From Chromatiaceae bacterium (GTDB taxonomy: Bacteria; Pseudomonadota; Gammaproteobacteria; Chromatiales; Chromatiaceae), in contig REDK01000076.1 of the NCBI GenBank assembly GCA_007693535.1, forward strand, positions 1 to 41,562: a DNA stretch of 41,562 nt, given 5' to 3'. The notes below the pieces were generated by a model, which worked only from the letters and a program-made list of their open reading frames with translations, had not been told where the DNA came from and made no database searches. The position numbers were made by a program, and so were the translations under genes. Shown one piece after another: positions 19,314 to 30,901 of the stretch (its first letter is position 1; every line of letters begins with the position of its first letter).

Positions 19314-20366
19314 TCAGCGGGGGTGGTGGTACCCGCTGGTGCTGTCATGCCTGCCCGCACATCGCTGGCGGGTGCGCTCGAAGGCGGCCTCGGCCTCGGC
19401 CAGGCGGGCGCGGATCTCGGGCTCGTATTCGATCGCGAAATCCAGAAAGGTGCGCGCGATCAGGGATAGCTCGCGTCCGCGGGAATAGACCAGGTGCCAG
19501 CGGCGCAGGATCGGAAATCCCTGCACGTCGAGCAGGGCAAGGCAGCCGCCGGCACTCTCCAGGGTCAGCGAATGCAGGGACAGGGCGGAGATGCCCAGGC
19601 CGCCAACGATGGCGTGTTTGATCGCCTCGTTGCTGCCGAGCTGCATGCGCACCCGCGGGGTGATCCCGGCCGCAGCATAGTGCTTGAGCACGGCATCGCG
19701 GATCCCGGAGCCGGGCTCGCGCAGGATCAGGTTTTCCTCGGCCAGGCGCGCGGTCGGGATCGCCCGCTCCTGTGCCAGGGGATGATCGGCGCGGGCCACC
19801 ATGACCAGGGGGTTGGGGGCGAAGGGGATGGCCTCGATGTGGCGATGGGTCTCGCGGGGCTGTCCCATCACATAGAGTTCGTCCTCGTGGGCCAGTAGCC
19901 GTTCCAGGATGTTCTCGCGGTTGGTGACCTTGAGCGAGACATCGATCCCGGGATAGACCTGACAGAAGGCGCCGAGGATCTCGGGGGCCACATTTTGTGC
20001 GGTGGTGAGCACGCCCAGGCGCAGGCGCCCGCGCCGCAGGCCCTTCAGGTCGGCGAGCTTGATCTCCAGGTTGGAGAGTACCCCGAGGATGTCGCGGCAG
20101 GCGGCATAGACCTCGCGCCCGGCGTCGGTGGGCTCGACGCTGCGTCCGACCGGGCGGAATAGGGGTGCACCGATGGCCTCGGAGAGCTTCTTGATCTGCA
20201 TCGAGACCGTGGGCTGGGTCAGGAACAGTTCCTCGGCGGCGCGGGTGAAGCTCCCTAGCCGCACGATCGCCTCCAGCAATTGCAATTGGCGCAGGGTGGT
20301 GTGCCGCAACAGATAGTCGGCACCGCCATCGCCGATCGTGCTCAGACCATCATTGATCGCTGGCAT
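19314..20366 (-). CDS. cbbR: LysR-type regulator of the Calvin cycle genes
   Basis: The N-terminal winged helix (LLRHTTLRQLQLLEAIVRLG, then SFTRAAEELFLTQPTVSMQI) is almost the CbbR consensus. The periplasmic-binding-protein-like effector domain follows, with GRLRLGVLTTAQNVAP and EPGSGIRDAVLKHYAAAG. CbbR activates cbb and carboxysome genes in response to metabolites such as RuBP or NADPH in relatives. The start is not certain: ATG 20366 and ATG 20420 both lack a clear ribosome-binding site, and the conserved part begins about 18 residues after the former. CbbR genes are commonly divergent from cbbL, but this one lies downstream of the whole cso operon in the same orientation. A C-terminal tail of about 20 polar residues exceeds the usual 300-330 residue length. 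Confidence 0.9.
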   Translation of the reverse strand: MPAINDGLSTIGDGGADYLLRHTTLRQLQLLEAIVRLGSFTRAAEELFLTQPTVSMQIKKLSEAIGAPLFRPVGRSVEPTDAGREVYAACRDILGVLSNLEIKLADLKGLRRGRLRLGVLTTAQNVAPEILGAFCQVYPGIDVSLKVTNRENILERLLAHEDELYVMGQPRETHRHIEAIPFAPNPLVMVARADHPLAQERAIPTARLAEENLILREPGSGIRDAVLKHYAAAGITPRVRMQLGSNEAIKHAIVGGLGISALSLHSLTLESAGGCLALLDVQGFPILRRWHLVYSRGRELSLIARTFLDFAIEYEPEIRARLAEAEAAFERTRQRCAGRHDSTSGYHHPR

Positions 20367-20457
20367 CTGAAAGTGGTCGCCGGTGCTGCCGGCATTGCGC
20401 TTGGCGCGGCGCCCGACCATGCTGATTCAGCGTGGCGGACCAATGCTGGCCGCTGCG

Positions 20458-20524: not shown

Positions 20525-20740
20525 TCAATCGGGCCAGATACGTTGGCCGCTGTGGTAGGGATCGTCCAGGGACGGGTTGCTGGCTCGCGCGGCACTGGGT
20601 AGGGCGGATGCGCCGAAGGCCGGGCCCGCCGGGCGAGCGGATGCCCCGCCACGGGGGCCGCCACGCGGGCTGGGCTTTCGCCGGGGTGGGGTGGACGCCG
20701 TGCCGTCGGTGCTGCCAGTGCTGCTGCTCTCTTCGCTCAT
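20525..20740 (-). CDS. Small disordered carboxysome-operon protein, candidate McdB-like positioning adaptor
   Basis: The 71-residue product starts MSEESSSTGSTDGTASTPPR, has an Arg/Gly/Pro-rich middle (RRKPSPRGGPRGGASARPAG) and ends DPYHSGQRIWPD with a tryptophan three residues from the C-terminus. Its ATG overlaps the acRAF stop by ATGA and sits seven bases after GGAGG, so it is translated as the last gene of the operon. Known alpha-carboxysome McdB proteins are disordered, lie at this end of cso operons, and use an invariant C-terminal tryptophan to bind carboxysomes. This is the basis for the proposal. The expected partner, the ParA-type ATPase McdA, is not beside it or elsewhere in the window. 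It is shorter than McdB proteins I know of. Identity is inference; that it is a real gene is well supported by its initiation signals. Confidence 0.6.
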   Translation of the reverse strand: MSEESSSTGSTDGTASTPPRRKPSPRGGPRGGASARPAGPAFGASALPSAARASNPSLDDPYHSGQRIWPD

Positions 20741-21009
20741 GTGCGATCCTCCAGGGGTGCATCGACCAAGGTATCGACCTGTTGCGCAAAGGCCTCGATG
20801 GCGGCGGTGAGAGTACCGCTGGTCTCATCGGCGAACAGGGTCAGGTTCACGTAATCACGCCCGAAACTCTGGTTCGGGTAGACGCCGGTCGCCTCCGACA
20901 GGTCGGCGATGCGGTCGAGGACCACCCGCAGCCGGTCGTAGTCCGGGAATTCCAGGCGGCGTTCCAGTCGCAGGGGGCGGTCGCGGCGACGCCAGGGATG
21001 AGCGGCCAT
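20737..21009 (-). CDS. acRAF: Alpha-carboxysome RuBisCO assembly factor (pterin dehydratase-like)
   Basis: The 90-residue protein contains LERRLEFPDYDRLRVVLDRI, then ADLSEATGVYPNQSFGRDYV and NLTLF. This is the pattern of the inactive pterin-4a-carbinolamine dehydratase homologue of alpha-carboxysome operons, which acts as a chaperone in form IA RuBisCO assembly. The dehydratase active-site histidines of true pterin enzymes are not evident. It follows the bacterioferritin-like gene by 75 bases and overlaps the McdB-like gene by ATGA. Its place downstream of csoS1 agrees with operons of other chemoautotrophs. Confidence 0.85.
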   Translation of the reverse strand: MAAHPWRRRDRPLRLERRLEFPDYDRLRVVLDRIADLSEATGVYPNQSFGRDYVNLTLFADETSGTLTAAIEAFAQQVDTLVDAPLEDRT

Positions 21010-21084: not shown

Positions 21085-21558
21085 CTAGAAGTAGGCCCGT
21101 TCTTCCGGTGCTTGCGGTTGGACGCCCAAGTCGGCCAGCCAGGTCTGGATCGCCCCGGCATGGGCCAGTTCGTCTTGCAGCAGGCCGTTGAAGAACTCAG
21201 CGTTTTCATGGTCGGCAATGCGCCGGCAAAACAGCATTGCCTCCTCGTAAAGGGCAACGATCTCGGCCTCCAGCGCGGCATCCTGCAGCAGCAGGCTGAC
21301 CAGGTCGCGTGCGACTCCAGCCGGGCGCAACTGCGATGCGTTGGGGGCGACTCCAAGGCCAAGCATGCGCTTGACGATGCGGTCGGCGTGCTGCATCTCC
21401 TCGACGGTTTCGTGCCGGAGGCGATCGGCAGCCTCGCGCAGCCCCCAGGCCTCGGCCAGTGCTGCCTGAGTCATATATTGTTGCACCGCCGAGTATTCCA
21501 GGCTCAGGGCGCGGCCCAGATAGCCCAGGGTGCGGGGATGAACGCTTGCGTGTCGCAT
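21085..21558 (-). CDS. Bacterioferritin-like protein of the carboxysome operon
   Basis: The 157-residue protein is a four-helix ferritin-like bundle with diiron ligands in the expected places: E21 in LSLEYSAVQQY, E54-x-x-H57 in EEMQHADR, E99 in LEAEIVALYEE and E130-x-x-H133 in DELAHAG. A bacterioferritin-domain gene is a regular member of cso operons in chemoautotrophs, but its function there is not established; iron storage or redox protection has been suggested. It lies 130 bases downstream of the last csoS1 gene and 75 bases before acRAF. The ATG at 21558 lacks a strong ribosome-binding site. Confidence 0.85.
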   Translation of the reverse strand: MRHASVHPRTLGYLGRALSLEYSAVQQYMTQAALAEAWGLREAADRLRHETVEEMQHADRIVKRMLGLGVAPNASQLRPAGVARDLVSLLLQDAALEAEIVALYEEAMLFCRRIADHENAEFFNGLLQDELAHAGAIQTWLADLGVQPQAPEERAYF

Positions 21559-30520: not shown

Positions 30521-30901
30521 GCTCAGCTCCTGTGGGTCTGTTCTGCGCTGCTGCTGCTTCGCCTGATCTAAGCCGGGGCCGAAGCCGTGAAAAAAGTGGC
30601 GCAACCCTACACCCATCGGAGTCTTTGGACAAAATCGATTGTTTCGATCCGACTGATCTATGTCAATCTATGCGTCTACGGGAACGCCGCGCCGTGCTGG
30701 TGCGTGCTGCCGCGGCAGGTCGCCGAATCGGTGCAGGACCGGACCCCGGCTAGGCACGAAGCAGGGCGCGGGGCAGGCGCATGTGCCGTACGCGGCTGCG
30801 GGCGCACGGGGCCGGGTGGGGACGCACCCGGGGTGGCAGGGGCCCCACGCGGGGTAGCCAGCGGGAGTGGTAACGGCGAGATGCGGCGAGAGTGGCAGTG
30901 C
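30521..30901. other. Regulatory region between apaH and cbbL
   Basis: This 381-base stretch has no supported gene. The part next to cbbL (30521-30690) is distinctly richer in A and T than its surroundings and holds the cbb promoter and candidate CbbR sites. The part next to apaH (30700-30901) is very GC-rich and shows nothing recognisable; the apaH terminator, if any, must lie in it. Confidence 0.6.
30638..30666 (-). promoter_or_regulatory. Predicted sigma-70 promoter of the cbbLS-cso operon
   Basis: On the minus strand a perfect -35 box TTGACA (30666-30661) is followed after exactly 17 bases by AACAAT (30643-30638), which matches four of six consensus -10 positions. The dyad TCGA-AACAA-TCGA overlaps the -10 box, and the direct repeat ATAGAT-N4-ATAGAT straddles the -35 box. 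Both are plausible contact sites for CbbR, a LysR-type activator. The predicted transcript start is near 30630, giving a leader of about 110 bases before cbbL. Confidence 0.6.

What the first reader, a model, noticed from the sequence alone, without database searches (positions are those of the whole stretch)
20525..20740. McdB-like protein at the end of the carboxysome operon without its McdA partner
A 71-residue disordered protein with a C-terminal tryptophan motif (QRIWPD) is translationally coupled to acRAF by an ATGA overlap and a GGAGG site. Published alpha-carboxysome McdB proteins sit at this end of cso operons and use an invariant C-terminal tryptophan. The ParA-type ATPase McdA normally encoded beside McdB is absent here. 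Either a distant ParA/MinD serves, or this protein positions or condenses carboxysomes by another route.
Basis: partly seen in the sequence, partly recalled or inferred. Interest (0 to 1): 0.7.

Follow-up and report, generated by a model that had tools for sequence, protein, structure and literature searches.

The report
Second, partnerless carboxysome-tag protein (McdB type 2)
The small protein at the end of this carboxysome operon is a second copy of the carboxysome adaptor McdB that has kept the carboxysome-binding tail but lacks the part that grips the positioning motor, while the complete motor-adaptor pair is encoded elsewhere in the same genome; this two-copy arrangement is already described, but in many related bacteria only the partnerless copy was found.

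Summary
In detail: a 71-codon gene on the minus strand (20525-20740), coupled to acRAF by ATGA, ends in QRIWPD. It is an alpha-McdB, but "without its McdA partner" holds only for the window. The same genome carries an mcdA-mcdB pair on another contig (C179), whose 106-aa McdB ends RRIWPD and has a basic, predicted-helical N-terminus. The window protein lacks that N-terminus. This is the published alpha-McdB "type 2": an orphan in the cso operon while mcdAB lies elsewhere. In 210 genomes of the order, 77 have acRAF; 74 of those have a WPD-ended ORF downstream, 16 as acRAF-mcdA-mcdB and 58 as orphans. Of the 58, 26 have a distant mcdAB pair; in 32 (26 of them at least 95% complete) no McdA ortholog was found. 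The N-terminal motif is in 16 of 16 and 24 of 27 McdA-adjacent McdBs and 0 of 58 orphans. In diverged McdA-free pairs the tail is kept while synonymous sites change. Best reading: a carboxysome-surface adaptor that does not engage McdA. New member of a known kind; the McdA-free group is the part worth following.

The parts
20525..20740 (-). alpha-McdB type 2 (orphan McdB), 71 aa, last gene of the cso operon
20528..20542 (-). C-terminal RIWPD codons: the alpha-McdB carboxysome-association motif R(V/I)WPD
   Evidence: pattern hit; motif defined in PMC11321042 (passages)
20681..20740 (-). N-terminal 20 residues MSEESSSTGSTDGTASTPPR: net charge -2 by count, no L..[STN][IT]R..K motif, no structure assigned by AlphaFold2/DSSP
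20737..20740 (-). ATGA overlap of acRAF stop and McdB start
20748..20752 (-). GGAGG ribosome-binding site, 7 nt before the ATG
20737..21009 (-). acRAF (pterin dehydratase-like Rubisco assembly factor)
   Evidence: name by the weak Pfam match and the place in the operon
21085..21558 (-). ferritin/bacterioferritin-like gene of the cso operon
19314..20420 (-). CbbR-type LysR regulator following the operon on the same strand
   Evidence: best NCBIfam hit is a CbbR model, 228 bits, below its cut-off of 450

Best explanation
The gene encodes an alpha-McdB of type 2: an orphan, disordered McdB at the end of the cso operon. Shown by sequence: it carries the R(I/V)WPD tail and lacks the N-terminal basic motif that McdA-adjacent McdBs have; a complete mcdA-mcdB pair lies elsewhere in the genome; 26 of 58 orphan-bearing genomes of the order have both. 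Inferred: the tail docks it on the carboxysome, and because it does not grip McdA it acts at the carboxysome surface without the motor, competing with or diluting the McdA-engaging McdB (tuning traction or clustering) and, in relatives without McdA, shielding or condensing carboxysomes by itself. Made in step with shell and Rubisco, it would set surface occupancy in proportion to carboxysome number.
For: Tail R(V/I)WPD is the alpha-McdB consensus, and the C-terminal fragment (last 10 residues) of H. neapolitanus McdB is sufficient for carboxysome association (PMC11321042, passages). Distant pair in the window genome: McdA 211 aa with KGGTGKTT, McdB 106 aa ending RRIWPD. Survey: 74 of 77 acRAF genomes have a WPD-ended ORF downstream of acRAF; in 16 mcdA lies between. 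Motif L..[STN][IT]R..K in the first 40 residues: 16 of 16 in-operon and 24 of 27 distant McdA-adjacent McdBs, 0 of 58 orphans; median net charge of the first 20 residues +2, +3 and -1. AlphaFold2: helix 3-21 in the paired McdB of the same genome; no structure assigned and mean pLDDT 59.6 for the window protein. In H. neapolitanus the first 20 residues are necessary and sufficient for McdA binding (preprint PMC12204374, passages). The published type 2 definition fits (PMC8262871, section 6). In the four most diverged McdA-free pairs the last 14 codons have pS 0.30 to 0.89 and pN 0.03 to 0.15.
Against: No localisation, interaction or expression data. Charge ranges overlap: orphans -5 to +5, in-operon 0 to +4, distant +1 to +5 (script-picked starts). 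The window protein has a basic stretch at residues 20-36 (RRKPSPRGGPRGGASAR) that might still touch McdA or DNA. Three orphan pairs in one McdA-free genus (G144/G145/G148) have whole-protein pN/pS of 1.35 to 3.51 on few changes, so the body is hardly constrained there; several close pairs have too few tail changes to say anything. Nothing tests the proposed competition. DSSP returned nothing for the model, which may mean no structure or a failed assignment.
Confidence: 0.6

Rival explanations
1. It works as an ordinary McdB with the distant McdA, as a second adaptor that McdA pulls on, using its internal arginine-rich stretch instead of an N-terminal helix.
For: McdA is present in the genome; residues 20-36 are arginine-rich.
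Against: 0 of 58 orphans carry the N-terminal motif; no helix predicted; 32 of 58 orphans sit in genomes where no McdA ortholog was found.
Confidence: 0.15
2. It is a Rubisco or carboxysome assembly helper working with acRAF, to which it is translationally coupled, rather than a positioning protein.
For: ATGA coupling to acRAF here; 58 of 77 acRAF genomes have it as the WPD-ended ORF next after acRAF with no mcdA between.
Against: By script-picked starts only 22 of 58 orphans start within 12 nt of the acRAF stop, so tight coupling is not general; the tail is shared with McdBs that sit behind mcdA.
Confidence: 0.15
3. It is a decaying remnant left when mcdA moved out of the cso operon.
For: The body is low-complexity and variable; two acRAF genomes (G104, G119) have no such ORF after acRAF.
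Against: Whole-protein pN/pS is 0.31 to 0.61 in 7 of 10 McdA-free pairs, and in the diverged ones the last 14 codons change mostly at synonymous sites; in 20 selected orphans M1, R67, W69, P70 and D71 are invariant and S2, E3, P56 and D60 nearly so.
Confidence: 0.08

Closest known systems
alpha-McdB type 2 (MacCready et al. 2021, not read; as described in review PMC8262871, section 6)
   Same: Orphan in the cso operon, no neighbouring mcdA, distant mcdAB, no charged N-terminus, C-terminal tryptophan, disordered.
   Different: Nothing essential in the window. The survey adds relatives with a type 2-like orphan and no McdA ortholog found, which the parts of the review that I read do not mention.
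alpha-McdB type 1 (Halothiobacillus neapolitanus McdB; here the 106-aa McdB of contig C179)
   Same: R(I/V)WPD tail, disorder, Ala/Pro/Ser/Thr/Arg-rich composition.
   Different: Type 1 sits directly behind mcdA and has the basic N-terminal motif and predicted helix; the window protein has neither.
beta-McdB (Synechococcus elongatus)
   Same: C-terminal tryptophan and partial disorder.
   Different: Longer, coiled coil, oligomeric, tail not WPD (as described in passages of PMC11321042 and PMC8262871; no sequence compared here).

Membership tests
alpha-McdB | C-terminal R(V/I)WPD with invariant tryptophan | tested here: met
   QRIWPD at the C-terminus
alpha-McdB | Encoded within or near the cso operon | tested here: met
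   Last gene after acRAF
alpha-McdB | Almost entirely disordered, biased composition, low hydrophobicity | tested here: met
   S13 P11 A10 G9 R7 of 71; AlphaFold2 mean pLDDT 59.6, pTM 0.15, no structure assigned; no dedicated disorder predictor was run
alpha-McdB | Associates with carboxysomes and forms condensates | not testable with these tools
   needs microscopy and purified protein
alpha-McdB | Sequence similarity to a characterised alpha-McdB (H. neapolitanus) beyond the tail | not tested
   the H. neapolitanus sequence was not fetched; Pfam and NCBIfam hold no model that matches
alpha-McdB type 2 | No mcdA beside it | tested here: met
   No AAA_31 hit on the window contig
alpha-McdB type 2 | An mcdAB pair lies elsewhere in the genome | tested here: met
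   G000 contig C179 29771-30719
alpha-McdB type 2 | Lacks the charged N-terminus of other McdBs | tested here: met
   No L..[STN][IT]R..K motif in the window protein or in any of 58 orphans; first 20 residues carry E, E, D and one R, net -2 by count
alpha-McdB type 1 | Directly downstream of mcdA with a basic N-terminal helix | tested here: not met
   Downstream of acRAF; no motif, no helix assigned

The most novel reading that the evidence does not exclude
Orphan McdB is an independent, McdA-free carboxysome system: in about half of the orphan-bearing genomes of this order (32 of 58) it is the only Mcd protein found, its tail is kept after mcdA is gone, and it spaces, caps or condenses carboxysomes without a ParA motor.
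Probability: 0.4. Interest if true: 0.65.

Novelty: new member of a known kind. Interest (0 to 1): 0.4.

Why it matters
The role of the second, McdA-blind McdB is stated as open in print (PMC8262871, section 6; PMC12918739, section 17, which places the extra copy away from the cso locus, unlike the first review and unlike this window). The survey gives natural test cases: close relatives with orphan plus mcdAB, and close relatives with the orphan alone, including three genomes where the usual mcdAB site is closed up. Named strains of both kinds exist, so the question is directly testable.

Tried and rejected
Rejected: that the genome lacks McdA (found). Rejected, as far as looked at: that second-tier ParA hits in McdA-free genomes are hidden McdAs. 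I looked behind one ParA locus each for 26 of the 32 such genomes (not G184, which had no hit, nor G041, G069, G070, G099, G145); none is followed by an R(I/V)WPD-ended ORF, though three loci had under 710 bases of room, and further ParA hits of the same genomes were not looked at.

Led nowhere: glyA, the neighbour of the pair in the window genome, is not beside mcdA in 9 related genomes compared. Tails of the two McdBs of one genome are not clearly more alike than across genomes (0.532 against 0.509 identity over 12 residues, 26 genomes). Extra WPD-pattern sites: of 17 fetched loci 16 have a true-stop site and none is a second mcdAB pair; one (L163, G100) holds a weak, short McdA match (E 8e-6) on the other strand. 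The G146 C516 site ends like the orphans of G150 and G151 and is probably that genome's own McdB on a split contig. Pfam and NCBIfam give no family for the 71-aa protein up to E 1.

Caveats on counts: the pattern ends in TRR, so it also hits TGG; counts use true stops. One search scored only 14 candidates in most genomes; the 32 McdA-free genomes were searched again with a profile, all candidates being scored in 29 of the 32 (not all in G178, G150 and G145). Start codons were picked by script; G098 (18 residues) and G100 have no convincing start. The three distant McdBs without the strict motif are G113 (masked), G116 (motif beyond residue 40) and G155 (Ala in the motif), read. The pN/pS pairs were chosen by me and are not independent; one pair that the script labelled McdA-bearing (G112-G114) is mixed, since no McdA was found in G114. 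Alignments A3 (20 of 58 orphans) and A4 (24 of 43 McdA-adjacent McdBs) hold selected rows. MacCready et al. 2021 (PMC8359340) is not held, so I could not check whether it already lists orphan McdB without any McdA.

Full report
What is there. The ORF is real, on the minus strand at 20525-20740: 71 aa from MSEESSSTG to SGQRIWPD, overlapping the acRAF stop by ATGA with GGAGG 7 nt upstream. It is the last gene of a complete-looking cso operon that starts with a cbbL-like ORF ending at 30616 (named translations) and is followed on the same strand by a CbbR-type LysR gene. No AAA_31 (ParA-type) hit lies on the window contig.

The partner is elsewhere. A search of the window's own genome (186 contigs, 99.99% complete) for R/S(I/V)WPD followed by TRR gave two sites, the window ORF and one on contig C179; the reversed control pattern gave one. 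C179 also carries an AAA_31 hit. The stretch (L018) shows a 211-aa McdA beginning MTLIAVVGNKGGTGKTT (Pfam AAA_31 9.3e-19) and, overlapping its end, a 106-aa McdB beginning MPESSRTSRRLIDSIRTVKG and ending RRIWPD, between urea-transporter-like genes and a glyA-like gene (named translations).

Known class. [quoted passage not shown] The alpha-McdB tail consensus is R(V/I)WPD (PMC11321042, passages). The window protein fits each of these stated features.

Survey. In 210 genomes of the order, 77 have acRAF. I examined the downstream region in these 77: 74 have a frame ending in WPD at a true stop. The others are G104 and G119 (a LysR-like frame directly after acRAF) and G146 (contig ends after 104 nt; a probable McdB tail is on another contig). 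In 16 of the 74, mcdA lies between acRAF and mcdB; 58 are orphans. McdA orthologs were found in 43 of 210 genomes at E 9.4e-54 or better, the next hit being 1.2e-32. Of the 43, 16 lie next to acRAF and 27 do not; one of the 27 (G155) has no acRAF hit. The 27 are each followed by a WPD-ended ORF and form one side of one branch in a McdA tree (100/98), consistent with one relocation. Of the 58 orphans, 26 have such a distant McdA and in 32 none was found; 26 of those 32 genomes are at least 95% complete, and the 32 span 15 genera. Some absences may be assembly gaps: G114 (94% complete) belongs to a genus whose other ten acRAF genomes have McdA. A McdA profile search of those 32 plus four others gave 328.7 bits for the window genome and at most 177.8 bits elsewhere (G180); that hit is not followed by a W-ended ORF.

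Loss at a known site. In G048, G049, G050 and G053 (window's genus) and in G152 and G156, mcdA lies between the same neighbours, c7 (ferredoxin-oxidoreductase-like, my reading) and c8. In G054, G052 and G051, which have the orphan but no McdA found, these neighbours lie close together on one contig with no McdA match: 264 bases between c4 and c23 in G054, 195 between c7 and c23 in G052, 283 between c7 and c8 in G051. In G052 and G051 the genes c2 and c4 were not found beside c7. In the window species c6, c2 and c7 are present at a third place with neither McdA nor c8 in the 15 kb fetched, and the pair sits on C179.

Two kinds of N-terminus. The motif L..[STN][IT]R..K lies in the first 40 residues of 16 of 16 in-operon and 24 of 27 distant McdA-adjacent McdBs and 0 of 58 orphans; median net charge of the first 20 residues is +2, +3 and -1, with overlapping ranges (0 to 4, 1 to 5, -5 to 5). 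AlphaFold2 puts a helix at residues 3-21 of the paired McdB; for the window protein DSSP gave nothing. In H. neapolitanus the first 20 residues of McdB, a predicted helix, are necessary and sufficient for McdA binding (preprint PMC12204374, passages).

Selection. In 10 chosen pairs of orphans from McdA-free genomes, whole-protein pN/pS is 0.31 to 0.61 in 7 and 1.35 to 3.51 in 3 (one genus, few changes). pN of the last 14 codons is 0 to 0.06 in 9 and 0.15 in 1; tail pS is 0.30 to 0.89 in the four most diverged pairs and 0 to 0.12 in the other six, which therefore say little. In 9 McdA-bearing pairs whole-protein pN/pS is 0.22 to 0.75, and in 3 mixed pairs 0.35 to 0.45 (G112-G114 moved by me to mixed). 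So the tail is kept without McdA; the body is weakly constrained.

Named relatives. Of 80 named acRAF loci kept out of 165 confirmed (many are the same genomes as in the survey, so this is no independent count), 73 are not cyanobacterial by title. Of those 73, 33 have mcdA plus a WPD-ended ORF, 33 a WPD-ended ORF without mcdA in the locus, 4 mcdA without the tail found (one with under 1000 bases of room), and 3 neither (two with under 1000 bases); none of 7 cyanobacterial loci has the tail (one with under 1000 bases), in line with the published absence of McdAB in alpha-cyanobacteria.

Verdict. Ordinary in identity, with a useful twist: in many lineages orphan McdB seems to stand alone. The search listings and the passages read do not state it, but the primary 2021 paper is not held.

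Noticed in passing
L018:7772-8720 (G000 contig C179) against L320-L323, L327, L328: The mcdAB pair has changed place: in the window genome it lies near glyA-like and urea-transporter-like genes, in six related genomes between a ferredoxin-oxidoreductase-like gene and ORF c8.
   Followed up: partly
L339, L340, L341: Relatives G054, G052 and G051 keep the orphan McdB but the usual mcdAB site is closed up on an intact contig.
   Followed up: yes
L197, L199-L202, L205, L206, L208-L210: A different ParA (about 27-36% identical to McdA) is followed by an ORF of about 172-183 aa ending like ISRPMQFMNWFMPW; another ParA neighbour with a C-terminal tryptophan, function not examined.
   Followed up: no
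window 21085-21558: A ferritin/bacterioferritin-like gene lies inside the cso operon between csoS1-like genes and acRAF.
   Followed up: no
L117 (G104), L179 (G119): Two acRAF genomes have a LysR-like frame directly after acRAF and no WPD-ended ORF there.
   Followed up: partly
L173 (G106 contig C3): A short frame ending LNDPRRPLHPPRIWPD, like the orphan tails of G144/G145/G148, in a genome without an acRAF hit.
   Followed up: no
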